Source of the DNA: a virus
Length of the DNA: 64,000 bases
Reading direction: 5' to 3' (one strand)
IMG/VR virus record: IMGVR_UViG_3300046507_000371
Span: 62,001-126,000 of that record
This document shows positions 2,856 to 58,038 of this stretch, one piece after another. Numbering within the stretch: position 1 is the first letter of the stretch; every line of letters begins with the position of its first letter. The notes under the pieces were generated by a model that was given only the letters and a program-made list of their open reading frames with translations, searched no databases and was not told the origin of the DNA. Both the position numbers and the translations under genes were made by a program.

Positions 2856-3875
2856 TTACGCTTTCTCAATGGCGATAGGATCACTTGATTGCTTGCCCAT
2901 ATCGACTTCTTTTAGCTTTGACTTTAAACGAGCACCAGCTGTGGGATTCAGCTGGCCGAACCAGTTCAACCGCCCCATGAGTTTACTGTAAAACAACTCT
3001 GCACTGATTCCGGCTTTGGCGGCCTCCGCCTCAATTCCGTTCTTGTTGCAGTTGTAAACCATAGCCCTGAGTTTGTTACGCTCAGATTTTTGCAGATTGA
3101 CCTTGACGTTCACAACGGCTCCGCATACATACTGCCGTTGGAAATGGCGCATCACTTTAGTCTTGGACTTGTTTACCCTGAATCGGTAACGTCCAACTTC
3201 AGTTGATACTTTGCGAAGAATCTTTCCAACAATACCTTTCCCTAACTTTTCTCGCGTTTCTGCATCCATCGAGATCGTGATGTCGTCAGCATAGATGCTG
3301 AGCGTCAGATTGTTTTCATCACAGAACTCTTTGATAGCAGGACCGAATGTCAGTGCAGTAATGATGTTACTGATCTTTGGACTGGTCAAGGCTCCTTGTG
3401 GGACGAATGACTCATAAGTACAAAGTTCTGACAATGTTCTAGCCGGTGCTTGACCGAAGCCAAGATGCTGGAACAAATCGAAAAGCTGGTATTGCTTGAT
3501 AGAAGTGAAAAAATCCTCTAGGTCGATACTCACGACCATGTCCTTACCCACATGGCTTTCGGCCATTTTAGGAATACTCCTGCCCTTCTCAAAAGCATGA
3601 ATGTATTCCGGTACCTCAATTTTATCCAGTATTTGGGTTAGGATCTTATACTGGACAACACGCATCAAGCTGTCTGGATTATGCAGGATTCTGTATTTCG
3701 TAATCGGCCCCCTCTTTCGCAGAGAAAGAATCGAGTAGTGCTCCGATTTGTTCTTCCCAAGCAGCGTTAGCATCTTCGATGATTTCCACCGAAGCTTCTC
3801 TGACAGATCCTTGTTCGACTGGATGCTGAACGGCTTGACGTAGGGCCTTAATACTAGTTGTTCCTGAATTTCCAT
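2856..3875 (-). CDS. Retron-type reverse transcriptase
   Basis: This 339-aa protein has all core RT blocks. They are KGRSI...AESH near 98-108 (retron NAxxH-like), VSIDLEDFF with the first catalytic Asp at 118, PQGALTSPKISN at 159-170, the YADD box at 195-198, and VCG at 250-252, corresponding to the retron VTG motif. The QGxxTSP form separates it from diversity-generating-element RTs. There is no fused maturase, integrase or endonuclease domain, and the length is normal for a retron RT. It overlaps the upstream 163-aa gene by about 200 nt in another frame, an unusually long overlap that suggests coupling. Likely role: defence, anti-competitor function or cDNA synthesis. No canonical msr-msd was recognised upstream. 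Confidence 0.85.
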   Translation of the reverse strand: MEIQEQLVLRPYVKPFSIQSNKDLSEKLRWKSSKMLTLLGKNKSEHYSILSLRKRGPITKYRILHNPDSLMRVVQYKILTQILDKIEVPEYIHAFEKGRSIPKMAESHVGKDMVVSIDLEDFFTSIKQYQLFDLFQHLGFGQAPARTLSELCTYESFVPQGALTSPKISNIITALTFGPAIKEFCDENNLTLSIYADDITISMDAETREKLGKGIVGKILRKVSTEVGRYRFRVNKSKTKVMRHFQRQYVCGAVVNVKVNLQKSERNKLRAMVYNCNKNGIEAEAAKAGISAELFYSKLMGRLNWFGQLNPTAGARLKSKLKEVDMGKQSSDPIAIEKA

Positions 3876-4920: not shown

Positions 4921-5265
4921 TTACTCTAACCAGCCTCGTAATTTGAGTTCTGAGGTGAGCCAGTTATAAGCTTCGGTTACTACTCGTCCATAGTCTTCTA
5001 TGAAGTGTGCATTTTCCGAGTGCGGGCCGAAATCATAGTCTTTGCCTTCGAAAATGAAGTAGCCAAGAAACGGAAGATGACTGAACCATGTAGCTGCGTT
5101 GGAGAGGTAGAAGTGTTTATTAGTTTCCCACTCTAAGAACGTAGTACCTTCCGGAGGATCTCCAAGTACATCTTGGATGAGTCCGTCAAATATGGTGACT
5201 AACGCAAAGTGGCCATCGACCCTGATTACCTGCAATTGGTCTTCAAACGTATGTTTAGATTTCAT
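4921..5265 (-). CDS. Unrecognised 114-aa protein
   Basis: I do not recognise this protein. I chose the ATG at 5265 over an upstream start because AAGGA precedes it by 7-8 nt. The sequence is rich in aromatic and acidic residues (FLEWETNKHFYLSNAATWF, KDYDFGPHSENAHF) and looks like a small globular cytosolic protein with no membrane segment. It is a monocistronic unit with its own promoter at 5313 and terminator at 4890, next to the non-coding repeat element. Confidence 0.6.
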   Translation of the reverse strand: MKSKHTFEDQLQVIRVDGHFALVTIFDGLIQDVLGDPPEGTTFLEWETNKHFYLSNAATWFSHLPFLGYFIFEGKDYDFGPHSENAHFIEDYGRVVTEAYNWLTSELKLRGWLE

Positions 5266-5312
5266 GTAGTTTCCTTGGTCGTGAGAAGGCACTACTGGGT
5301 GTTACTATCCTT

Positions 5313-5318
5313 CTTATA
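5313..5318 (-). promoter_or_regulatory. Extended -10 promoter of the 114-aa gene
   Basis: The minus strand reads TTTTTGGTATAAGAAGG, 48 nt upstream of the chosen start codon. Confidence 0.65.
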
Positions 5319-5319
5319 C

Positions 5320-5895
5320 CAAAAACTGGACACATGTCCAGAAATGTCCAATTTGTCAAAAACCTCGGATCCTTACTGGGTAAGGCTTTGCGGGGAGCGT
5401 GTCCAGTTTGTCCAATTTCTCTAAAAAAAACTGGACAGCTGAAACCTAAGCCCAGTAAGGCTTTGCGGGAGATTGTCCAGTTTTTTGGCCTTTTTTCCAA
5501 AAACCATACCTCACTTTCTATTTGAGAAATAAATTTACCAAAAAAGAAAAACATAGGGTTTCCACTAACAGTCCAGAAAACAGGGGGTACTATATATATA
5601 TTTATATTTGAACTTTTAAAAAATATATTTATATATAAGAGAGTGGGGTAACAGTTTTGCTAGTTTTTTATTTCTAATAGAAAGTGAGGTATGGTTTTTC
5701 TGAAAACCTCGAAAAAACTGGACAAAATCGCTGTGAGCCTTATCCAGTATGGGTTTGAGCCTGTCCAGTTTTCTAAAAAGTTTCTGGACAAACTGGACAC
5801 ACTGGCCGCAAAGCCTTGCTGGGCTTGGGTTTCAGCGTTTCGAAGAAAATGGACATTTTTGGACAAAACTGGACACGTCCAAAAACTTCTTGTTT
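5320..5895. repeat. Non-coding TGTCCAG-iteron element, copy A of an inverted pair
   Basis: No credible gene lies here. The stretch holds many TGTCCAG / CTGGACA words in both orientations, often facing each other to form hairpins. It has an internal inverted repeat (CCATACCTCACTTTCTAT at about 5506 against ATAGAAAGTGAGGTATGG at about 5685). The centre is an AT-only block around 5586-5641 of alternating TATA. A near copy in the opposite orientation lies at 51590-52160. Stretches such as 5387-5446 and the AT core are identical base for base. Iterons plus an AT-rich core fit a replication origin or a partition/packaging site; a recombination target is also possible. The function is inference. Confidence 0.8.
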
Positions 5896-9285: not shown

Positions 9286-10557
9286 TTAAAACTGACCGAC
9301 GTTATCCCACACTGATGGCCGTGCTTCTTCTGCAGCCGCTTCAGGAAGAGCGAAAGATACGTTGTTAGCTTCAGCTTCAAAATCTACCAACGTAGGACCA
9401 CTTACCTCGCCTACCAAGGGTTCCGAAGTTCCAACAAGTCCACTATAGACAGGAGTCATCTCAACATCCATCGGCTGAACCTGAATGATCGGACGAAGCT
9501 CCTTGACCTTGGCTTTCTTCTTGGGCTTCTCTGCTTCTTTAACTACCGGCTCGCCAGACGTCTGAGCCTTGATCAGAGCATCCACTTCAAGAGCATTACG
9601 ACGAATGAACATATTCAGTACGTCAACGGCGTTAATGCCAGTCAGTCCTCCAAGCATTCCAGCACAACCCGTACCGATTTGAGTCAAATCAGCGTCGCCA
9701 TGAATCATCTTGTTGCGATATTCCACAACTGTATTCTTCGTATACGAGGTCGATCCACTGACGATATCAATCGACACCGCATTGTAGTCGATAGCCTTGT
9801 TATAGAAGTGATTCTGCACGAACGACAGAATGTACATAGCCATCAATGAATTGATAGCCAACGTCTGATCAAGATCTGCACAACTACCGAGACCAGGATT
9901 GTCTTCCAGATCACGATAGAAATAGTAGTCGAATGGAATGTAGCTCAGATGATCGTGTGCGTACTCAATACGTTCCGGATTCTTGAAATGCGGACGCGCA
10001 GCTTCAGCACTACCATAATCGAAGTCAACAAAGCCGACGTTGTGGAACATACGGACTTGACCAAAACTGTCTTCGTTGCCTGCATCAATGAACACCGTGG
10101 GATCACCGTTAACGGAAAAAGTTTCGATAACAATACGACGAGCTTTGGCACTGTCAACACACATGATAACCATGTCGTTGAAACGATGCTGAATATCAAG
10201 GCCGCTTACTTCCGATAGCAGACTGCGGAAGGCATACGGATTCGTACCTTCTTCAATGAACTTCGGATAAGCAACGACGTTCATGCCATATGCCTTTGCA
10301 TATCGATTGGCCAGTACTGCAGCCTTGTTCTTACCAACATCGCTCTGAACGAAGTTCTGACGAATCAGATTCTTCTGCTCAACAACGTCACCGTCAACCA
10401 AGACGATGTTCGTGGTACCGAGCCAACCAGACGGTACGTGTTCTTTCGTGATGGAACGGATGAATTGAATCAGTGCCGGTACCAGCCGTGAGCCAGTTCC
10501 ACCGCAGCCAACTACAAAAATGTTCGAAGGAATAGAGGAGGGACGAAACGTAAACAT
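9286..10557 (-). CDS. ThiF/E1-like activating enzyme (PRTRC ThiF-type)
   Basis: The 423-aa protein has the Rossmann ATP motif VVGCGGTGS (15-23), the acidic LVDGDVVEQKNLIRQNF segment (53-69) typical of E1/ThiF/MoeB adenylation domains, and a candidate catalytic Cys226 in GLGSCADLDQTLAINS. It should adenylate the C-terminal glycine of the Ubl at 14592-15014 and may take it as a thioester. Residues beyond about 330 are a proline- and charge-rich tail. It is last in the minus-strand cassette and has its own promoter at 10634; GGAGT precedes the ATG. The neighbouring JAB peptidase, E2-like protein and Ubl make this a conjugation system rather than thiamine or molybdopterin synthesis. Confidence 0.85.
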   Translation of the reverse strand: MFTFRPSSIPSNIFVVGCGGTGSRLVPALIQFIRSITKEHVPSGWLGTTNIVLVDGDVVEQKNLIRQNFVQSDVGKNKAAVLANRYAKAYGMNVVAYPKFIEEGTNPYAFRSLLSEVSGLDIQHRFNDMVIMCVDSAKARRIVIETFSVNGDPTVFIDAGNEDSFGQVRMFHNVGFVDFDYGSAEAARPHFKNPERIEYAHDHLSYIPFDYYFYRDLEDNPGLGSCADLDQTLAINSLMAMYILSFVQNHFYNKAIDYNAVSIDIVSGSTSYTKNTVVEYRNKMIHGDADLTQIGTGCAGMLGGLTGINAVDVLNMFIRRNALEVDALIKAQTSGEPVVKEAEKPKKKAKVKELRPIIQVQPMDVEMTPVYSGLVGTSEPLVGEVSGPTLVDFEAEANNVSFALPEAAAEEARPSVWDNVGQF

Positions 10558-11244: not shown

Positions 11245-12558
11245 TTAATGGATACCGTTCATCTGGATACGTTCTTGAGCACTGTCAGGGAGTTCCTGAT
11301 ACAGACGCTTGAACAATTCCTCTTGACCTTCTTCTGACATCATATGAATCATATCTGCCATCAGAGTTTCTACGAGTTCATCCTTTCCGTTCAGCACAGC
11401 CATGCCATCATCGATCAAACAATAGATGTCAGCAACGTCTTTGCCATGAACTTCCTTGACTTCTTCATAACGTTCATCACAGTCAAACGTGGTGTTAGCA
11501 TCAGGATCGAAATCAGGATTGTATGGAAACAACTGCGGATGAGCGCTCAGATGAGACTCTTCATACTCAGGGTTCTCACGAAGAACAGCCAGAGCACGTT
11601 CTGCCTTATCAAGCGTAAGCATAGACGTGTCGATGATACCGTCAGCGTCTACTGCATCAGGGTTGAAGGCCCAGGACTCCCAGGGGAAGCCTGCTCCAGC
11701 TCCAGCGGCAGCTGAGTGCTCCTCCCAATAGTTCCCATAACCATCGGGAAGTAACCCCCTATCACGAGCCTGCATATGTGGCCCTGCCCGATTTCCTACG
11801 TCCTCGCTTCCGCCCCTTGTGTACTGCCAAGGCTTTAGATGATCCGCTTTTCCCTTTGTGTTGTTCCCTCCAGTCGAATATCCAGGACTCGTAGTTACGA
11901 TCTTGGAAATCCAATCTTCAGGAATTGCTTGCTCTTCACGAGTAGGGAGGACGAAGATGTCATCGAAGTTGCAGTCGATCTTCTTGTCCTTATAGTTAAA
12001 GCGCCACACCGTTTGAGGAGTTTCATCCTTCAGACGACCGATCACACCCGAGAAACCGATATTGCCACGGTCATCGTTATTGTCCGTGGTGCTGAAGAAT
12101 GCACCCATCGTATTGTGACTATGAATGTCACACACGATAGTCTTGCCAGCAGGCAGGGAGTTCCAGTCATACGATGCCGAAGCCTTCGACACACGTTGCT
12201 CAGGAACGATCAGATGATAACCACTCTCTTGATCCCAACAAACCCAGATCATTGCTTCAAGCTCGGACTTCTTCACTTCCATCACTTGCTTGAAAAAGGC
12301 CACGACCTGATCAAACAACTGGATAGGAATCTTGCCGTCAGGCAGGAAGTTGATTTCTTGCGAGATCTTTCCTTCCTTATAGTTTGTCGGAAGTTTTTCC
12401 ACCTTGAGTCGCACGAAACGATTACGACCACGAAGCTTGTGATGCTTGATAATACCTTCGCTGGTCATTGCGTAGATTTCGCTATAACCAGCGTCTACTG
12501 CTGCTTGAAGTTCATTGGGAAGAACAACGCAGCTAATGTGTTGGCTAATGATTTCCAT
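11245..12558 (-). CDS. JAB/JAMM peptidase (PRTRC protein A-like)
   Basis: This 437-aa protein contains a complete JAMM zinc site: His146-Ser-His148, ten residues, Asp159, with Ser156, in CDIHSHNTMGAFFSTTD, and an upstream Glu near 101. The spacing is exactly that of active deubiquitinase-like JAB peptidases. The N-terminal 90 residues are a separate beta-rich domain and the C-terminal 200 residues are low-complexity and acidic. It would cleave Ubl precursors or conjugates; the obvious substrate is the two-domain Ubl upstream, which needs cutting between repeats. AAGGA precedes the start. The gene lies between the E2-like gene and the small proteins. Confidence 0.85.
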   Translation of the reverse strand: MEIISQHISCVVLPNELQAAVDAGYSEIYAMTSEGIIKHHKLRGRNRFVRLKVEKLPTNYKEGKISQEINFLPDGKIPIQLFDQVVAFFKQVMEVKKSELEAMIWVCWDQESGYHLIVPEQRVSKASASYDWNSLPAGKTIVCDIHSHNTMGAFFSTTDNNDDRGNIGFSGVIGRLKDETPQTVWRFNYKDKKIDCNFDDIFVLPTREEQAIPEDWISKIVTTSPGYSTGGNNTKGKADHLKPWQYTRGGSEDVGNRAGPHMQARDRGLLPDGYGNYWEEHSAAAGAGAGFPWESWAFNPDAVDADGIIDTSMLTLDKAERALAVLRENPEYEESHLSAHPQLFPYNPDFDPDANTTFDCDERYEEVKEVHGKDVADIYCLIDDGMAVLNGKDELVETLMADMIHMMSEEGQEELFKRLYQELPDSAQERIQMNGIH

Positions 12559-48957: not shown

Positions 48958-49463
48958 GCTAGTTGTGGTTCGTTTGGTTCACTCGGAGTTTCCTCCGGTT
49001 CGTTAAGTTTTTCAATTTCAGTATCATACCAAATCGCTGCGATCAGAGGAAGTGCGGAACCGTAATTTTCGTCTTCCATCAAGTCCATAGCGTCTTTGAT
49101 ACAATTCATATCAGCCCATTTGAGAATCTCAGGATCTGAATCCATGAGAAGTTTCTCAACTTCACGGCTGAAAGCGTTACCAATGATCTCTTGCTTACGA
49201 CTACTAGGAATCGTCTTCATAAACGAGTTAGTGATCTCGTCTTGAATACTCGTTTCTTCGCTAGCAATTTGATTGCCAATCGTAACATACGCATCCCGGC
49301 GATGCACGTAACCCATCACCTTGACCTTCTCTTCCATATCTTCGAAATGCTGAGTGTAGAGATCAAATGCGTTTTTACATTGATACTTATCGAGATACGG
49401 CTGAATCTGCGTGGTAAGGAATTTGATGTTACCAGCGATCATTTGTTGAATTTTGCTATACAT
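48954..49463 (-). CDS. Unrecognised 169-aa protein
   Basis: This mostly helical acidic protein (QMIAGNIKFLTTQIQPYLDK, EKLLMDSDPEILKWADMNCI) ends in a Pro/Glu-rich tail. Its start overlaps the stop of the DHH gene (TAATG). It may be a regulatory partner in the nucleotide-enzyme operon; no motif supports a specific role. Confidence 0.5.
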   Translation of the reverse strand: MYSKIQQMIAGNIKFLTTQIQPYLDKYQCKNAFDLYTQHFEDMEEKVKVMGYVHRRDAYVTIGNQIASEETSIQDEITNSFMKTIPSSRKQEIIGNAFSREVEKLLMDSDPEILKWADMNCIKDAMDLMEDENYGSALPLIAAIWYDTEIEKLNEPEETPSEPNEPQLA

Positions 49464-50320
49464 TATTCACTCCACCATTCGTCGTTAAGGATATGTTCAA
49501 GAATCTTGAAACCAACTCTACAACCAGCAGCGTTGGGATGCCCGCCACCGCCTAGTGCTTTACATAGATCAGCTACGTTAACGCCACTATCTTTATGTGA
49601 GCGCATTGACAACACTACATCATTGTCTTTGGTAATGAACCACATAATCGCAAGATCAACGTTAAGCGTTTTGTCTTCACAGATTGCTGCACCCTTCTCA
49701 GAGATGAACTCACCTGTGTTTAGAATCCCTGCTTGATACTTATCAAAGTTCACTACCCTGACTGTCTTTGGCACTGCTGCTTCAACGATTTGTTTCTGTT
49801 GTTGGAGCAAAGTGTTACCGATGTCGATAAGCTTTGGCAGTTCTTCTTCCTGCTCAGCATAGTTGTTCCATGCATCCATACGGCCTTTGAGAAGCCCAAG
49901 CCCTGAATGCACTGCTGCACTTAGAGGAAACTTGAACTTCCACAAGTCACGGTCCTGAACGTACTGAAGCAACATCGGAACAGGGTCGTCGGGATGGAAA
50001 TATTCCCAGGCTAGCACTGCCCCAGACTTGGTCATATCGAAGACCACGTCAGAAAGGCCTAGGAGGGCCTCCTGAGCAGTGGCGTGATGGTCGATGACTA
50101 CTACCCTCTTGCAGCGGCTCCTGAGTGCCTCTAAAGCCGTCCTGGGCATACTGAAGTCTAACATGAATACCTCAGTGTAACTCGTCTGAGGAAAATCGGG
50201 TAGATTTTGACCATACTGACAAGCATGGTATTCAGCATTGTCACCAAACTTCTTCCAAGCTGCGTAACGTGCACCCGTGCCATCCATGCATGAAGCATGG
50301 TAAAGAATTACTGTATTCAT
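49463..50320 (-). CDS. DHH/DHHA1-family phosphoesterase
   Basis: The 285-aa protein has HASCMDGTGA near the N terminus, VVVIDHHAT with Asp77-His78-His79, and the DHHA1 signature GGGGHPNAAG near 255. This family hydrolyses short oligonucleotides, pAp or cyclic dinucleotides with Mn2+. In a phage it may destroy nucleotide second messengers used in defence or recycle nanoRNA. The start overlaps the preceding stop by ATGA. Confidence 0.88.
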   Translation of the reverse strand: MNTVILYHASCMDGTGARYAAWKKFGDNAEYHACQYGQNLPDFPQTSYTEVFMLDFSMPRTALEALRSRCKRVVVIDHHATAQEALLGLSDVVFDMTKSGAVLAWEYFHPDDPVPMLLQYVQDRDLWKFKFPLSAAVHSGLGLLKGRMDAWNNYAEQEEELPKLIDIGNTLLQQQKQIVEAAVPKTVRVVNFDKYQAGILNTGEFISEKGAAICEDKTLNVDLAIMWFITKDNDVVLSMRSHKDSGVNVADLCKALGGGGHPNAAGCRVGFKILEHILNDEWWSE

Positions 50321-52212: not shown

Positions 52213-53844
52213 TTACAGGTTGCCAGCAATGAATTCCGAAATGAACCTCGGAGTTGCAGTATCGAAACCAACCACGTCAAGCATATTGCGGTCAGTCGGA
52301 TCAGCAATGCTGAAGTTGTTCACAGCCATACCAACCGTGATCAGCTTAGCTTCAGGCTTGTTCATACCCTGACGATACTTGCGTACCGCTTGGAACACGT
52401 GTTGGCCGCCAGACCACGTTTCGTTATCCGTGTAAACACAGACAGCGTCAACGTCCCACTTATGTTGAAGCGCATACTCGAACGGCAATGCACAATTCGT
52501 ACCACCGAAGTTGTGCGCACGAACCTTACCACACGCCGTAGCCAAAGTATCTTTGGATGTGATCCCGAGATCCTTAAAGCCATTAGCGCCGCTCGTGAAA
52601 CCACGGATCTCAGTCCACGGCTCTGTGCGAGCGGTGACCATAGCCATGATTGCCGTACCTTCAGCACAGCTCAACAGAGGCGTATTGCTGATCGGAGCAC
52701 TCATTGAACCCGATACATCCAGGCCCAACAGAATGTTCTTACCGGACGGCTCTATCGCTTCAAACGAAACATAGAACGCATCTTCCAGATCAGCCACAAT
52801 GGTACGGGCCGGAGTCCATACGAGTGAACCCTTATCGCCACGGCCTTGCGCGTAGATCTTCTGCGCAACTACGATTGACATCGGATGCAGACGTTCCTTG
52901 CGGATGGCTTCAACATCGTGGAGCTTGGCAGATACAATCTTGCTCGTTTCCGAGAAAGGCTTGATCAAACCAACTGCCGTGAGCTTGTTCAGGTTACGAA
53001 CCAGCGCACCCAGACCCATGTGAGGCACAAGAGCTTCCCAAACCTTCGGGTCATTCTTCTGCTCATTCGGAATCATTTCGTGCGTGAGCTTGAAATCCTG
53101 GATCAGCTTAATCAATGTCTTCGTATCTGCAGTCTTGGCTTGCTCTGCAGCAATCAGAAGTTGAGGCACGAGATCGCCTTGCGACAGCGACTCTGCACCC
53201 TTGTTGATAAACTTGTACAGGTTCTGACGAACCGGATCGGTGCCAGGCTTGACGTGAGCCAGACGCATGATGTCCTTGTGGGACCAGCCGTCACGTTGCT
53301 TGTACTTTACGATCTGGAACGCAAGCTTATCGGTATCCTTTGAGGAATACCAGTTCTGAACTACATTCTTGAGCGAACGGCCCCAACCACGCATACCGTT
53401 TGCGAATGCAACGAAGTGCATGAAGTGCGTGCCAGTACGAGCCACGAGATTCAGCTTATCCTTCGCATACAGCTTGGTTGCCACGTCGCCGTGGGTGAAG
53501 ACCAGAGCCATGACCAGAAGCGCATAGTCATTGTTCTTTGCACGGCCAGCTTGGCTGATCTCTACCACACGATCAACCACAACCTTGCCATTTGCCTTGA
53601 TGAGCTTCACGATCTCATCAGTGTTCTGCTTCGTGATATCCTTTTCGCTAGCGTAGAACGTACCGCCGCTCGTGCCGATGATAAGGAATCGATCCAGCTT
53701 TTGAAGGCCAGAGATCTCAAATACAAAGCCGCCAGCGTTGTTCTTGACCTGAGCTACCGGAGCGTTGCCAGCCGGGCGATTCTGCGGCGTGGTACGTGCA
53801 ACAGTACGGGTATTGGTATTCTTTGCGAGGGTATTGAATGACAT
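52213..53844 (-). CDS. rsr: Ro60/TROVE-domain RNA-binding protein (Rsr-like)
   Basis: The 543-aa protein has a helical TROVE N-terminal domain (ALVFTHGDVATKLYAKDKLN, YKQRDGWSHKDIMRLAHVKP) and a C-terminal vWA domain with a full metal-ion site Asp376-x-Ser378-x-Ser380 in LGLDVSGSMS. Ro proteins are ring-shaped and bind Y RNAs on the outer face and misfolded RNA ends in the pore. I chose the ATG at 53844 because AAGGAG precedes it by 6 nt; a TTG 27 nt upstream is unlikely. Y-RNA-like RNAs are encoded immediately upstream on the same strand, strongly supporting the assignment. It is transcribed after the RNA locus, probably by readthrough. Confidence 0.93.
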   Translation of the reverse strand: MSFNTLAKNTNTRTVARTTPQNRPAGNAPVAQVKNNAGGFVFEISGLQKLDRFLIIGTSGGTFYASEKDITKQNTDEIVKLIKANGKVVVDRVVEISQAGRAKNNDYALLVMALVFTHGDVATKLYAKDKLNLVARTGTHFMHFVAFANGMRGWGRSLKNVVQNWYSSKDTDKLAFQIVKYKQRDGWSHKDIMRLAHVKPGTDPVRQNLYKFINKGAESLSQGDLVPQLLIAAEQAKTADTKTLIKLIQDFKLTHEMIPNEQKNDPKVWEALVPHMGLGALVRNLNKLTAVGLIKPFSETSKIVSAKLHDVEAIRKERLHPMSIVVAQKIYAQGRGDKGSLVWTPARTIVADLEDAFYVSFEAIEPSGKNILLGLDVSGSMSAPISNTPLLSCAEGTAIMAMVTARTEPWTEIRGFTSGANGFKDLGITSKDTLATACGKVRAHNFGGTNCALPFEYALQHKWDVDAVCVYTDNETWSGGQHVFQAVRKYRQGMNKPEAKLITVGMAVNNFSIADPTDRNMLDVVGFDTATPRFISEFIAGNL

Positions 53845-53884
53845 TTGAGGCTCCTTAAGTTTAGGGAACAAAGTTTAAATCGAC

Positions 53885-53924
53885 TAAAAAAAGAAGGTCT
53901 GAATCCAAGATGGAAACAGACCTT
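53885..53924 (-). terminator. Terminator of the RNA locus, just before Ro60
   Basis: AAGGTCTG and CAGACCTT pair and are followed on the minus strand by CTTTTTTT. The Ro60 ATG lies about 40 nt further, with no promoter in between, so leaky termination probably sets the Ro60 to RNA ratio. Confidence 0.88.
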
Positions 53925-54316
53925 CGGGTACTTCTAACTTACCACATGTGGTGCTGAACTGGGGACATCTAGGGATCCTGGTTACCAGGGCCCTGGAGAT
54001 GCTCCTCGTGCTCATCATCTCCGCTCCAGTAGAGGCGTAGCCGACACTGGGCGGAAAGCTATAACTTAGAGTTACTCTAAGCCAGCAATCTAACAACTGC
54101 TTGAGATACGTAAGTCTAGTGGTACTGCGGTCATGACCTGACCTCATGCTGGGCTGTAAAGCGACCCAGCGGATCTCCGGCTGTAGTGGAGTAGCGCAAG
54201 ACGTAGCGCAGCGGAGTCTTGTGGTACGCAACGGAAGCGGGAAGTTGATACCTACAGAGTTACTCTATAGTCACTTTCCAAACTGCAAAGTTAAATACGA
54301 AAGGTCATGATGGGGA
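53925..54316 (-). ncRNA. Structured non-coding RNA at the end of the Y-RNA transcript
   Basis: No credible gene lies here. The minus strand folds into several hairpins, including CTTAGAGT/ACTCTAAG, GGAGATGATGAGC.../...GCATCTCC, CCTGGTAACCAGG and repeated CAGCCCAGC-like words. Repeated words TAGAGTAACTC occur twice. It may be a single RNA domain or several short RNAs. A 115-codon open frame over it is a by-product of the structure. Confidence 0.55.
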
Positions 54317-54447
54317 TACGGGCAAAAGGCGTGCTAGAAGATTTTACGTGCTCTATCCGCTAAGCTATACAACCCTCAAGGCTGCAGTTGGATTCGAACC
54401 AACGCCACGACTTCCGAATAGTGATAATCTAACACTAACGGCCCGTA
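54317..54447 (-). ncRNA. Y-RNA-like RNA with permuted tRNA-like module (Arg UCG-like)
   Basis: The ends pair (TACGGGC/GCCCGTA), then CGTTA faces GCCTTTT, then GTGTTAGA pairs with TCTAGCAC, then TTATC. Inside is a T-arm (GTTGG-TTCGAAT-CCAAC), a stem TGCAGCC/GGTTGTA closed by TTGAG, and a D-arm (TAGCTTAGCGGATAGAGC). All acceptor pairs form. An anticodon-like loop ATTCGGA with an ACT/AGT stem sits at the start. The order T-arm, acceptor, D-arm is the reverse of a normal tRNA but is expected for the tRNA-like module of bacterial YrlA Y RNAs. Confidence 0.78.
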
Positions 54448-54455
54448 AAGAGGAA

Positions 54456-54518
54456 GTGAGCAAATGAAAGTGATCTGGAGGAAATCTTAAAAGGATAATC
54501 CAAATCGAAACGGCTCAC
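54456..54518 (-). ncRNA. Short Y-RNA-like RNA without tRNA module
   Basis: Stem GTGAGC/GCTCAC, internal loop CGTTTC against ACTTTCATTT, upper stem GATTTGGA/TCCAGATC, then TTATC and a small loop CTTTTAA. It follows the same plan as its neighbours but with a minimal loop. Confidence 0.72.
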
Positions 54519-54527
54519 AAAATTGAA

Positions 54528-54662
54528 GCTGAACAAAAGGCGTACTGGAATTTTTAGCGCTCTACCAACTGAGCTATGCGGCAACCCGTAAGGCAACCAC
54601 AGAAGGACTCGAACCTTCGACCTCTCTATTAACAGTAGATAAACCAATACAAGCGGTTCAGC
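54528..54662 (-). ncRNA. Y-RNA-like RNA with permuted tRNA-like module (Asn GUU-like)
   Basis: Ends pair GCTGAAC/GTTCAGC, then CGCTT, upper stem GTATTGG/CCAGTAC, then TTTATC. Inside are TCTA-CTGTTAA-TAGA (an Asn-type GUU loop), variable AGGTC, T-arm GAAGG-TTCGAGT-CCTTC, a stem TGTGG/CCGCA, and D-arm TAGCTCAGTTGGTAGAGC. If circularly joined, the anticodon stem would be CTCTA/TAGAG. The acceptor end G matches the Asn discriminator. It reads as a real tRNA turned inside-out inside a Y RNA. Confidence 0.8.
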
Positions 54663-54673
54663 GAAACTGAGAA

Positions 54674-54843
54674 AACGAACAAATGTTTGCCAAGGGAGAT
54701 ACTGGATTCACCAGCTTAGCTTTAGCTCAAGCAGAGTACAACAATGTTAACCCTCTTGAAGTATCTCTCGTTTCCGAGTACTGCTGATACGACTGTCGTT
54801 TAACTTTCCGATAGTAGATAACCCTTAATGCGTTCGGTTCGTT
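54674..54843 (-). ncRNA. Long Y-RNA-like RNA with an unidentified insert
   Basis: Ends pair AACGAAC/GTTCGTT, upper stem TTAAGGG/CCCTTGG, then GGGTTATC as in the others. The 110-nt insert contains ACGACAGTCGT and ACTCGGAAACGAGAG hairpins and GAGCTAAAGCTAAGCTGG, but no standard T-loop, so it is not clearly tRNA-like. It may be a diverged module of another type. Confidence 0.6.
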
Positions 54844-54853
54844 TGAAAATTGA

Positions 54854-54918
54854 TACGGGCAAAGAAATGAAACTAGGGGAATCAGTAAGAGGGATAACCT
54901 AGCATCGAACGGCCCGTG
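54854..54918 (-). ncRNA. Short Y-RNA-like RNA
   Basis: Ends CACGGGC/GCCCGTA (GCCCGT part paired), then CGTTCGA, upper stem TGCTAGG with CCTAGT, then GGTTATCC and a small loop. The 3' side carries TTTCTTT before the closing strand. Confidence 0.7.
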
Positions 54919-54926
54919 AAATGGGA

Positions 54927-55058
54927 ATGGACAAGTAATCGAATGGATCTGGAATCGCTGTGTTTACCAATTTCACCAACCCCGCAACTGCAGCGGAGTA
55001 CAGGACTCGAACCTGTAATTTGCGATTTGGGTTTAGATAAACCATTCTATCGGTCCAT
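54927..55058 (-). ncRNA. Y-RNA-like RNA with permuted tRNA-like module (CCC anticodon-like)
   Basis: Ends ATGGAC/GTCCAT, upper stem GAATGG/CCATTC, then TTTATC. Inside are loop ACCCAA with ATCGC able to pair GCGAT of the D-side half, T-arm ACAGG-TTCGAGT-CCTGT, stem ACTCCGC/GCGGGGT with full pairing, and D-arm GGTGAAATTGGTAAACAC. G1-C72, C2-G71 and U73 fit tRNA-Gly, but the expected U33 is not visible, so identity is uncertain. The order is again T-arm first. Confidence 0.75.
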
Positions 55059-55112
55059 GAACTTTAATTCAGGCACTGACTCTTTAGAATCAATGCGAGG
55101 ATTAAAGCGAGG

Positions 55113-55178
55113 GTGAGCAAAAAGAATAATGCTGGGGAGTAATCACCAATTGATAACCCAACATAAGAACGGCTCACT
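55113..55178 (-). ncRNA. First Y-RNA-like RNA of the array
   Basis: Ends GTGAGC/GCTCAC, then CGTTCTT against TATTCTTTTT, upper stem ATGTTGGG/CCCAGCAT, then TTATCA. From memory, vertebrate Y4 RNA has the same order CCGA, stem, GGG-UUAUC-A, CCC, U-rich, closing stem. The 5' end coincides with the start site predicted from the TATAAT box at 55185. Confidence 0.78.
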
Positions 55179-55184
55179 AAGGTT

Positions 55185-55190
55185 ATTATA
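55185..55190 (-). promoter_or_regulatory. Promoter of the Y-RNA array
   Basis: The minus strand reads TTTCAATAATTTA, then a spacer, then TGGTATAAT, a perfect sigma70 -10 box with extended TG. Start would fall about 7 nt downstream, at the first nucleotides of the first Y-RNA-like unit. Confidence 0.85.
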
Positions 55191-55210
55191 CCATTACTTC
55201 TTAAATTATT

Positions 55211-55268
55211 GAAAGCGAATTTTGAACTGGAAGATTTTTTGGCAGATAATCCAATTCGACGGCTCTCG
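55211..55268 (-). ncRNA. Short Y-RNA-like RNA upstream of the array promoter
   Basis: Ends GAGAGC/GCTTTC, then CGTC, upper stem GAATTGGA/TCCAGTTC (8 bp), then TTATC. Its 3' closing strand overlaps the -35 region of the array promoter. It is transcribed from further upstream, perhaps as the tail of the long structured RNA. Confidence 0.65.
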
Positions 55269-56472: not shown

Positions 56473-56640
56473 TTAAGAGAAGGGTAAACCTCTGTTCTCT
56501 CGCCTCTCATAATACTCTTTCAATCGCTGCTGTTCCTGTCTATTATACTCAGCGATTTCACTAGTGACTTGAGAACGTCCTTCCTTAATTCCTCGTAAGT
56601 ACTCTGACCTTCCGTACTCAGCGATTTCTTCTTCACTCAT
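56473..56640 (-). CDS. Small charged protein (55 aa)
   Basis: I choose the ATG at 56640, overlapping the preceding stop, over an upstream GTG. The protein is a charged helix (SEEEIAEYGRSEYLRGIKEG, RQEQQRLKEYYERRENRG). The function is unknown. Confidence 0.5.
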   Translation of the reverse strand: MSEEEIAEYGRSEYLRGIKEGRSQVTSEIAEYNRQEQQRLKEYYERRENRGLPFS

Positions 56641-57361
56641 ACTTCTCTTTTTCAGTCCAGAGAATACGTCCTTGATATTCCTCACCGTGAATCAAATGAT
56701 TCAATTCAAAGTCTTTGCCAGTGAGTGCTGCCCCGCAGAGCAGAGTGTCATCAAGACTCAAGCCTTCACGCCCATCAGTCAATACAACGTCTTTCATTTG
56801 CTGTGGGAGAAAGTCATTGATGTCATCTAGAATTACGTATGACTCGACTGTAACAGGTACTTTAGATAGACTCTGAATAAGTCTTCCATTCTGTACGAAA
56901 AAGTCTGGACCTGTGTAGTAACGTTTTTCTTTAATGCCTTGAAGGAAATCAAATATCTGTTCTCCACGATTCCCACGAAACTCAGGGGTCTTGCCTATAA
57001 CACGAGTAGGATCAATACCCATAGCGCCAAGCACCAACCTAAGACTGTAGATGTCAACGCCTTCTCTCCACGTAGATGAGACAACGATATGAGCATTGGT
57101 AGCAACGAGGAGCTTGTTAAGCAGTCCAACTGCGTACTTATCAATGCCTTCCGGATACTTCACATACGGAGCTTTAACAACTTTAGCCCTTGGACCTCCG
57201 AAGTAGCCCATATCAGCTTCATGGTCCACCTCAAGGTTAGGCCATGCCCCTGCAAGAATGAAAGTCTTGTCAGAGTTCAAAACTCCGTCGATATCCAAAA
57301 ACACAAGACGTGTTTTGGATGTGTCAAGCGTAGGTGCTTCGTCTTTAAGGGCAACGTCCAT
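56633..57361 (-). CDS. HAD-superfamily phosphatase, RNA-repair (SAK) type
   Basis: The 242-aa protein has the HAD nucleophile motif LVFLDIDGVLNS (Asp23, Asp25), then HIVVSSTWREG, the conserved Ser/Thr motif, a Lys/Arg helix and YVILDDINDFL with the acidic pair. The spacing with GIDPTRVIGKTPE and R-x-x-QIFDFL is that of HAD domains found in 'Swiss army knife' RNA-repair proteins. It may dephosphorylate RNA ends or nucleotides. Proximity to the Ro60/Y-RNA locus is suggestive but not proof of a link. Confidence 0.75.
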   Translation of the reverse strand: MDVALKDEAPTLDTSKTRLVFLDIDGVLNSDKTFILAGAWPNLEVDHEADMGYFGGPRAKVVKAPYVKYPEGIDKYAVGLLNKLLVATNAHIVVSSTWREGVDIYSLRLVLGAMGIDPTRVIGKTPEFRGNRGEQIFDFLQGIKEKRYYTGPDFFVQNGRLIQSLSKVPVTVESYVILDDINDFLPQQMKDVVLTDGREGLSLDDTLLCGAALTGKDFELNHLIHGEEYQGRILWTEKEKYE

Positions 57362-57362
57362 T

Positions 57363-57665
57363 TTATATCCTCAGAAGTTTAACAAAGATATCAACCTTAT
57401 TAGACAACGCCATTTCAAAAGCCATAACGTCTTCTTCATAAGAGCTATCTGGATCGTAATAATCAAGTCTAGATCCTAACTCGTAGCACAAGTCAAATAC
57501 CTTACGTGAAATGCTAGGACTAAAGATTAAGCCGTAAGCTTCTTCCCAAAGATTCTCATTTCGAGCATTGCACGTTATTTTGGTTACCGTTTCGTACATG
57601 CTCGCAAGTTCGTTAAGCTTTTGAGCTAAGGAACTCTCCAGCGAGTTTTGAGACGAGCTTTCCAT
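57363..57665 (-). CDS. Unrecognised 100-aa protein
   Basis: I use the ATG at 57665 after a GGGGA-like site; a longer frame opens inside the neighbouring gene. It is helical with an acidic centre (RLDYYDPDSSYEEDVMAFEM). It overlaps the GatB/YqeY-like gene by about 50 nt. The role is unknown. Confidence 0.45.
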   Translation of the reverse strand: MESSSQNSLESSLAQKLNELASMYETVTKITCNARNENLWEEAYGLIFSPSISRKVFDLCYELGSRLDYYDPDSSYEEDVMAFEMALSNKVDIFVKLLRI

Positions 57666-58038
57666 CGTATTTCCCCGCGTAGTTGTTTTTGAAGATAGCC
57701 ATGATTTTGCCGATGTTATCCAGTGCAGCATTCTCGATGATTACCTTGATTTCAGTTTCTGACAACTGAGTCGGCATGAAGCCTTGAAGAAGCTGGCGTT
57801 CAGCAATGAGAGCGCCTCGCTTAAGGTCATCCTTCTCATGTGCAAGCATTTCCGCAATGCCTTCAAGACCTTTCTTGACGATGCTAACTACTTCTTCATC
57901 AGTAGGGTCACGATTCTCTTTCTTCGTAGCTACTTGCTTGGCTTCACCAAGGACAGTACCAAGCTTAGTAAACGAAAAAGAATCACCGAGTTTCAGGGCT
58001 TCAACCCGCAGTTGTTGAAGGTGTGCGTAAAGAGTCAT
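57613..58038 (-). CDS. GatB/YqeY-domain protein
   Basis: The 141-aa protein shows the YqeY pattern: an N-terminal helix pair with RGALIAERQLLQGFMPTQLS (E-x-x-x-L-x-x-Y/F-x-P-x-x-L) and a C-terminal KIMAIFKNNYAGKYDGKLVS. In GatB this domain contacts tRNA; free YqeY-like proteins may bind tRNA or modulate amidotransferases. It may act with other RNA-related genes here. Overlaps both neighbours. Confidence 0.75.
   Translation of the reverse strand: MTLYAHLQQLRVEALKLGDSFSFTKLGTVLGEAKQVATKKENRDPTDEEVVSIVKKGLEGIAEMLAHEKDDLKRGALIAERQLLQGFMPTQLSETEIKVIIENAALDNIGKIMAIFKNNYAGKYDGKLVSKLAGEFLSSKA

What the first reader, a model, noticed from the sequence alone, without database searches (positions are those of the whole stretch)
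52213..55268. A phage Ro60 protein next to an array of eight Y-RNA-like RNAs
The minus strand carries a full TROVE/vWA Ro60 gene and, directly upstream, eight units with one shared plan. The plan is a 6-7-bp closing stem, CCG(T/A) facing a U-rich strand, a 6-8-bp upper stem ending in GG/GA, then TTATC. From memory, Y RNAs bound by Ro60 have this order, and vertebrate Y1/Y4 even share GUUAUC after the upper stem. Bacteria usually have one or two Y RNAs per Ro gene, so an eight-member array with a strong sigma70-type promoter is exceptional. It may let the phage run its own RNA-quality-control or RNA-decay particle with interchangeable adaptors.
Basis: partly seen in the sequence, partly recalled or inferred. 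Interest (0 to 1): 0.95.

Follow-up and report, generated by a model that had tools for sequence, protein, structure and literature searches.

The report
Phage Ro60 gene with eight Y RNAs
A bacterial virus carries its own copy of Ro60, a protein known from human autoimmune disease, beside a row of eight small RNA genes built to be held by it; three of them imitate transfer RNAs, so the virus probably builds its own RNA-handling particles, though nobody has yet shown that the RNAs are made or bound.

Summary
The minus strand encodes a full Ro60 (TROVE + vWA), and directly upstream lie eight units with the Y-RNA plan: lower stem, CCG, upper stem, UUAUC, U-rich return strand. A strict finder recovers all eight; shuffled 2-kb regions give 0.04 on average. 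Both stems covary strongly across 41 distinct units from 20 loci.

Three units (U3, U6, U8) carry a tRNA body in permuted order (T arm, acceptor stem, D arm), as in bacterial YrlA RNAs. U6 matches Rfam YrlA at E = 1e-6, below the curated cut-off. U5 carries a different, covarying module found only in this phage lineage.

The array is large but not unique: distant Ro60 phages have 5-8 units, and two bacterial plasmids 3-4 by eye. Phage Ro60 with Y RNAs is a known kind; the size, mixed modules and independent evolution of frame and tRNA-like core (one unit compared) make this a new variant.

The phage lacks PNPase and RtcB, so any RNA-decay particle would borrow host enzymes. Function is inferred, not shown. 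The array sits inside about 1 kb of further conserved, structured, unexplained RNA.

The parts
52213..53844 (-). Ro60/Rsr orthologue, TROVE ring + vWA domain with MIDAS; ATG with AAGGAG at 53844 (open frame runs to a TTG at 53871)
   Evidence: Pfam, PDB sequence search, 20-sequence alignment with invariant K189/R193/H206 and D385/S387/S389
55211..55267 (-). U1, short Y-RNA unit (57 nt), upstream of the promoter
   Evidence: R1 match 21.5 bits
55185..55193 (-). extended -10 promoter element TGGTATAAT; predicted start at 55177, the first base of U2; -35 poor
   Evidence: sequence; present in all relatives, same spacing in L002, L005, L006 and 1 nt closer in L007; not found by the hexamer scan
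55113..55177 (-). U2, short Y-RNA unit (65 nt)
   Evidence: (z -3.57)
54927..55058 (-). U3, Y-RNA unit with permuted tRNA body at 55016-54960 (tRNA-Leu-like D arm)
   Evidence: permissive YrlA match 55024-54955 (15.9 bits, E 8.2)
54855..54917 (-). U4, short Y-RNA unit (63 nt)
   Evidence: (z -2.80)
54673..54844 (-). U5, Y-RNA unit with a long non-tRNA module (three hairpins, one with a GAAA loop in every allele)
   Evidence: 16 pairs with changes on both sides in 5 alleles; model R2 finds full-length copies only in this lineage
54528..54662 (-). U6, Y-RNA unit with permuted tRNA body at 54618-54559
   Evidence: Rfam YrlA 39.8 bits, E 9.8e-07; predicted fold shows T arm, acceptor stem and D arm
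54456..54518 (-). U7, short Y-RNA unit (63 nt), the most conserved unit
   Evidence: (z -2.95)
54317..54447 (-). U8, Y-RNA unit with permuted tRNA body at 54403-54350
   Evidence: Rfam YrlA partial, 22.3 bits, E 0.11; core and frame evolve independently
53886..53925 (-). intrinsic terminator between the array and Ro60 (GAAGGTCTG...CAGACCTTC + T7)
   Evidence: sequence; in all alleles, with a paired change (GGTCTG/CAGACC to GGCCTG/CAGGCC) in L002
55268..55834 (-). upstream flank: conserved structured non-coding region of unknown identity
   Evidence: RNAalifold z -11.5 against column shuffles; same 7 contigs only; no confident Rfam family
53926..54305 (-). downstream flank: conserved structured non-coding region with two AGAGTAACTCT hairpins
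   Evidence: RNAalifold z -4.7 (computed with the terminator included); no confident Rfam family

Best explanation
The locus is a phage Ro60-Y RNA operon. A promoter starting exactly at U2 makes a polycistronic RNA of seven Y RNAs (U1 comes from upstream), ending at a terminator just before the Ro60 start codon. The units are separated mostly by spacers of about 10 nt, rich in pyrimidines or A/U, and are probably cut apart there by a host endonuclease (inferred).

Each unit offers the same Ro60-binding frame: lower stem, CCG bulge opposite a U-rich strand, upper stem, UUAUC. The apical part is a variable adaptor. U3, U6 and U8 present a tRNA body with a canonical T loop and a GG-containing D loop. 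By analogy with YrlA this would recruit proteins that recognise the tRNA elbow, above all host PNPase, giving a phage-run RNA-decay or quality-control particle. U1, U2, U4 and U7 have only a loop and may gate the Ro60 ring. U5 presents another fold and presumably another partner.

Shown: anatomy, conservation, covariation, tRNA-body geometry, co-location with Ro60. Inferred: transcription, processing, Ro60 binding, partner recruitment, benefit to the phage. I put 'array of Y RNAs for this Ro60' at 0.93 and 'the tRNA-like units tether host PNPase or a comparable RNA enzyme' at about 0.45.
For: Ro60 homology to Rsr (which forms the PNPase particle in Deinococcus) and vertebrate Ro60. Invariant K189, R193, H206 align with K170, R174, H187 of Xenopus Ro60, Y-RNA contacts from memory. 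Eight units against about 0.04 by chance. In 41 distinct units 95.6% of pair cells pair, against 73% shuffled and 28-45% slid; 110 double changes against 32. Of 42 R1 matches in 301 kb, all lie on the coding strand upstream of Ro60 or in the window's array. tRNA-like cores: 170 of 170 stem cells pair in 11 cores from five alleles, TTCGA T loops, GG in every D loop. YrlA E 9.8e-07 (U6) and 3.7e-07 (L005 U8). U8 of L002 and L005: frame 92% identical, core 70%; of window and L002: frame 81%, core 98%. YrlA binds PNPase, and DusA and TruB act on it (PMC8394870).
Against: No expression, processing or binding data. No unit reaches the Rfam YrlA cut-off of 69 bits; nor do the tRNA-like units of mycobacteriophage Ava3 or of Nocardia. 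RF00019 (vertebrate Y RNA) gives no match even at E up to 10. The genome record encodes no PNPase or RtcB. Folding energies of the tRNA-like units and U5 are only 1.3-1.9 sd below shuffles. The host is unknown.
Confidence: 0.6

Rival explanations
1. tRNA decoys: the tRNA-like units, stabilised by Ro60, compete for or sequester tRNA-acting enzymes (host tRNA nucleases of anti-phage defence, tRNA-modifying enzymes) and so protect host and phage tRNAs.
For: A competitive-inhibitor role of YrlA towards an anticodon nuclease has been suggested (PMC7790460). This phage carries about 20 tRNAs of its own to protect. Several different tRNA bodies are displayed, and core and frame evolve apart in U8.
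Against: The anticodon arm is replaced by the Ro60 stem, so anticodon nucleases are not mimicked at their cut site; Salmonella YrlA was not cut by one (PMC7790460). Four units have no tRNA-like part, and U5 is something else.
Confidence: 0.22
2. Uncut scaffold: the array works as one long RNA of 1.3-2 kb that, with its structured flanks, holds many Ro60 rings in a row.
For: Short spacers of about 10 nt; flanks are strongly conserved in structure (z -11.5 and -4.7); order and count of units are fairly stable across alleles.
Against: Distant phages keep the units, while a flank motif is found only in this lineage; known bacterial Y RNAs act singly. The predicted promoter start coincides with the first base of U2, which suits free Y RNA ends.
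Confidence: 0.12
3. Broken or permuted tRNA genes, with chance hairpins between them, unrelated to Ro60.
For: The cores look like tRNA halves in reversed order; the phage has a tRNA cluster elsewhere.
Against: No tRNA is called here; every core sits inside the same covarying Ro60-type frame, other units share the frame without a tRNA part, and the arrangement recurs next to Ro60 in distant phages.
Confidence: 0.02

Closest known systems
YrlA (Rfam RF02553), tRNA-mimicking bacterial Y RNA of Salmonella and others
   Same: Order of parts: terminal stem, then T arm, acceptor stem, D arm; canonical T and D loops; encoded beside Ro60/rsr. U6 aligns end to end, E 9.8e-07.
   Different: Below the curated score (39.8 of 69 bits); three different tRNA bodies in one array; UUAUC after the upper stem, not visible in the YrlA consensus printed; U6 of L005 and L006 has a lengthened acceptor stem.
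Phage Ro60 loci (mycobacteriophage Bxz1 group, Streptomyces, Gordonia, Rhodococcus phages)
   Same: Ro60 homologue in 359 phage records, often with Y-like units just upstream, some tRNA-like.
   Different: Most have 0-3 detectable units; the window has 8 and its relatives 6-8 by the strict finder, with a lineage-specific U5 and structured flanks.
Deinococcus Rsr-Y RNA-PNPase particle (RYPER)
   Same: Ro60 orthologue of the same family (E 1.1e-110 to Rsr 2nvo) and a Y RNA with a tRNA-like effector module.
   Different: No PNPase gene in the phage; eight adaptors; function unknown.
Vertebrate Y RNAs and nematode stem-bulge RNAs
   Same: From memory, CCGA after the lower stem and GUUAUC after the upper stem; weak RF01656 (nematode sRNA) matches to units of phage BearBQ and Nocardia, E 0.046 and 0.025.
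   Different: No RF00019 match to the window; to my knowledge no tRNA module in the vertebrate RNAs.
Listeria phage CKA15 (P100-like) abundant non-coding RNAs near an Rsr-like gene
   Same: Three highly transcribed non-coding regions within 2 kb upstream of a Ro60-like gene, proposed as possible Y RNAs (PMC12282133).
   Different: No Y-RNA structure was shown there; not compared here.

Membership tests
Ro60/Rsr protein | TROVE (ring) domain followed by a vWA domain | tested here: met
   Pfam TROVE 3.9e-35, vWA_Ro60 4.9e-54; near full-length match to 2nvo and 1yvp
Ro60/Rsr protein | MIDAS residues (DxSxS) of the vWA domain | tested here: met
   D385, S387, S389, T458 and D482 invariant in 20 Ro60s
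Ro60/Rsr protein | Y-RNA contact residues K170, R174, H187 of Xenopus Ro60 (identity from memory) | tested here: met
   Aligned to K189, R193, H206; invariant
Ro60-bound Y RNA | 5' and 3' ends form a stem with a conserved bulge, then an upper stem | tested here: met
   All eight units; covariation in both helices
Ro60-bound Y RNA | Gene next to Ro60 | tested here: met
   Array ends about 470 bases upstream of the Ro60 start, same strand
Ro60-bound Y RNA | Physical binding to Ro60 | not testable with these tools
   Needs pull-down or binding assay
Vertebrate Y RNA, Rfam RF00019 | Match to the curated covariance model | tested here: not met
   No match with E up to 10; not filed there
YrlA, Rfam RF02553 | Permuted tRNA-like module (T arm, acceptor, D arm) on top of the Y stem | tested here: met
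   U3, U6, U8: all stem pairs form, canonical loops (predicted fold complete for U6). Absent in U1, U2, U4, U5, U7
YrlA, Rfam RF02553 | Curated gathering score of 69 bits | tested here: not met
   Best in window 39.8 bits, E 9.8e-07; tRNA-like Y units of Ava3 and Nocardia also miss it (46.1 bits at most). Called YrlA-like, not filed as RF02553
YrlA, Rfam RF02553 | Modification by DusA/TruB and binding of PNPase | not testable with these tools
   Experimental
RYPER (Ro60-Y RNA-PNPase) particle | PNPase present | tested here: inconclusive
   None encoded by the phage record; host unknown
rsr-yrlBA-rtcBA RNA repair operon | RtcB encoded with Ro60 | tested here: not met
   No RtcB in the phage genome record

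The most novel reading that the evidence does not exclude
Ro60 phages keep Y-RNA arrays as swappable adaptor sets: one Ro60 ring, one conserved binding frame, and a changing set of apical modules (several tRNA bodies, bare loops, lineage-specific folds such as U5) that direct it to several different host proteins during infection, including partners never linked to Ro60 before.
Probability: 0.33. Interest if true: 0.8.

Novelty: new variant of a known kind. Interest (0 to 1): 0.6.

Why it matters
What bacterial and phage Ro60 does is largely open; only the Deinococcus particle has a worked-out partner. A locus with eight Y RNAs that share one binding frame but differ in their apical module is a natural comparison set: one pull-down would show which modules recruit which proteins. 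It suggests that Ro60 may be a general RNA-guided tether rather than a single-purpose particle. The survey also shows that Rfam's YrlA cut-off misses the phage Y RNAs examined, so they are probably under-annotated, and that arrays of up to eight units recur in unrelated phages, some of them culturable (Rhodococcus phage Trina).

Tried and rejected
Rfam at curated cut-offs gave nothing in the window. A first, over-strict finder saw only two units and was replaced. ARAGORN found no tRNA in the window, so the tRNA parts are not ordinary tRNAs. The idea that 8 is unique was rejected. The idea that the flanks are a known giant RNA such as GOLLD or ROOL: no confident Rfam match in the window or three relatives. 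A search for a flank motif found only the same 7 contigs. A broader home for U5: beyond this lineage model R2 gave only matches to the Ro60 frame. A bacterial baseline by genome survey could not be run, so I used four plasmid or genome loci, read partly by eye. The 2014 and 2018 Y-RNA papers are not held, so what they report is from memory. Structure prediction of Ro60 was not run because sequence homology to solved structures is decisive.
Full report
What is there. The window is bases 62001-126000 of a 181,435-base virus record. It is a tailed phage: its large terminase is 46% identical to that of Salmonella phage Arash and 43% to those of three Vibrio phages of about 187 kb. On the minus strand, 52213-53844 encodes a Ro60 orthologue with TROVE and vWA domains. 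It is at most 45% identical to Ro60 proteins of actinophages and 73-100% identical to those of seven contigs in the viral collection. Residues K189, R193 and H206 align with K170, R174 and H187 of Xenopus Ro60, which I recall as Y-RNA contacts; they are invariant in 20 divergent Ro60 proteins, as are the MIDAS residues.

The eight units. Upstream, in about 950 bases, lie eight units of 57-172 nt: U1 55267-55211, U2 55177-55113, U3 55058-54927, U4 54917-54855, U5 54844-54673, U6 54662-54528, U7 54518-54456, U8 54447-54317. Each has a lower stem of 6-8 bp closed at the first C of CCG, an upper stem, UUAUC after its 5' strand, and a U-rich strand opposite CCG. A strict finder recovers all eight. 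On 82 such 2-kb regions the shuffled average is 0.037 and the maximum 1. The seven shorter units fold with both stems; the single-sequence fold of U5 shows the lower stem and a partial upper one.

Covariation. A covariance model (R1) built from short units of five alleles finds 42 matches at E up to 1 in 301 kb. By position, all lie on the coding strand upstream of Ro60 or in the window's array. On 41 distinct aligned units, 95.6% of cells pair (73% after shuffling, 28-45% after sliding), and 110 cells have changes on both sides against 32 in shuffles; the lower stem pairs in 99.6% of cells. The alignment was fitted to the structure, which favours it somewhat, but the stems written out unit by unit tell the same story.

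The tRNA mimics. U3, U6 and U8 contain, inside the upper stem, a tRNA body in permuted order: T arm with TTCGA loop, 3' acceptor strand, short loop, 5' acceptor strand, D arm with GG in its loop (strings verified in the sequence). Over 11 cores from five alleles every one of 170 stem cells pairs. Acceptor, T and D stems all show pair replacements. This is the plan of bacterial YrlA. Rfam YrlA aligns end to end with U6 (39.8 bits, E 9.8e-07), partially and weakly with U8 and U3, and with U8 of L005 (44.9 bits, E 3.7e-07). None reaches the curated 69 bits, but neither do the tRNA-like units of mycobacteriophage Ava3 or of a Nocardia genome.

Other modules. U1, U2, U4 and U7 have only a short loop. 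U5 has a long module with three hairpins; one ends in a GAAA loop in all alleles while its stem changes (16 pairs of the whole unit have changes on both sides). Model R2 finds it full-length only in these relatives; elsewhere it hits just the Ro60 frame. Between L002 and L005 the frame of U8 is 92% identical while its tRNA-like core is 70% identical; between window and L002 the frame is 81% and the core 98%. So in U8 core and frame evolve independently, as expected if modules can be exchanged. This rests on one unit.

Expression signals. An extended -10, TGGTATAAT, ends 7 nt before the first base of U2. It is in all relatives, with the same spacing in L002, L005 and L006; in L007 I count 6 nt. 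The -35 is weak and the hexamer scan does not list the site, so 'strong' is not justified. The units are separated by spacers of about 10 nt, except U2-U3, where a hairpin intervenes. A terminator stands at 53925-53886 just before the Ro60 ribosome-binding site. U1 is upstream of this promoter and must come from another transcript.

How unusual is it? Ro60 homologues occur in 359 of the phage records searched and in at least 447 stretches of the viral collection. Of 82 loci examined, 45 have at least one unit by the strict finder. Distant phages reach 8 (L122), 7 (L073; Rhodococcus phage Trina), 6 (L021) and 5 (L023, L105); the printed folds are convincing, and many carry tRNA-like modules. 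By eye, a Rhizobium plasmid shows four units and a Picosynechococcus plasmid three. The array is thus at the top of a continuous range. Phage Ro60 with tRNA-like Y RNAs is known in outline (PMC12282133 and PMC7824862; and a 2014 survey of bacterial and phage Y RNAs whose content I know only from memory).

Function. In Deinococcus, Y RNA tethers Rsr to PNPase and directs it to structured RNA (PMC8394870, PMC7790460). The phage record has no PNPase or RtcB, so such a particle would use host enzymes. The preserved elbow geometry of U3, U6 and U8 supports recruitment of a partner that binds the tRNA elbow. The main rival is a decoy role towards tRNA-acting enzymes, which PMC7790460 raised for YrlA; the phage has about 20 tRNAs to protect. 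Against it, the anticodon arm is missing. Nothing here distinguishes these by experiment.

Unexplained. The array sits in about 1.95 kb without protein genes. The upstream flank (55834-55268) and the downstream flank (54305-53886) are conserved in structure (RNAalifold energies 11.5 and 4.7 sd below column shuffles). A conserved motif of the upstream flank occurs only in the same seven contigs, and the flanks match no Rfam family with confidence. They may be a large structured RNA of their own.

Verdict. Observation confirmed; interpretation partly supported; a new variant of a known kind. The identity of the RNAs is well supported by sequence; their function is open.

Noticed in passing
window 55834-55268 and 54305-53926 (-): Two conserved, structured non-coding regions flank the Y array (alifold z -11.5 and -4.7) and share motifs (CATGAG..TCATGA, ACGTAT-like); the downstream one has two AGAGTAACTCT hairpins. 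No Rfam family; possibly a new large structured RNA.
   Followed up: partly
L006 about 5138-5569, and the same place in L007: An HNH-endonuclease-like reading frame (Pfam HNH 4.6e-4, just below cut-off) replaces U8 in two relatives, as if a homing gene had invaded the array.
   Followed up: partly
L002 and L005 upstream extracts, 1847-1963 and 1869-1978 in the numbering: A ninth unit after U8 carries what looks like an acceptor stem plus T arm in normal, not permuted, order; L073 and L105 also seem to hold whole tRNA-like bodies in normal order inside Y frames.
   Followed up: no
L016 4790-4912: On a 370-kb contig, a tRNA-like RNA in normal order just upstream of Ro60 has its anticodon arm replaced by a stretch with the Y motif (CGGAAAGGGTTATC): possibly a Y RNA circularly permuted the other way. 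Folding was not decisive.
   Followed up: partly
G000:C1:147298-147370 (-), outside the window: Among about 20 phage tRNAs, the best-scoring one has a CUA anticodon (amber suppressor or TAG recoding?). Only 3 of 49 long open frames in the window end in TAG.
   Followed up: partly
window 2856-3875 (-): Reverse transcriptase (RVT_1, 1.1e-23); whether retron, DGR or other was not examined.
   Followed up: no
window 9286-10557 and 11245-12558 (-): ThiF/E1-like protein and a JAB-domain protein close together, resembling prokaryotic ubiquitin-like pathways.
   Followed up: no
window 56633-57361, 57613-58038, 49463-50320 (-): RNA-related neighbours of Ro60: HAD_SAK_2 (HAD domain of RNA repair proteins), YqeY/tRNA-amidotransferase-like, DHH-DHHA1 phosphoesterase.
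   Followed up: no
L036 6461-6517 and 5740-6151 (Gordonia phage GMA2): A Pistol ribozyme (56.8 bits) and a tmRNA gene lie near Ro60 beside a phage tRNA cluster.
   Followed up: no
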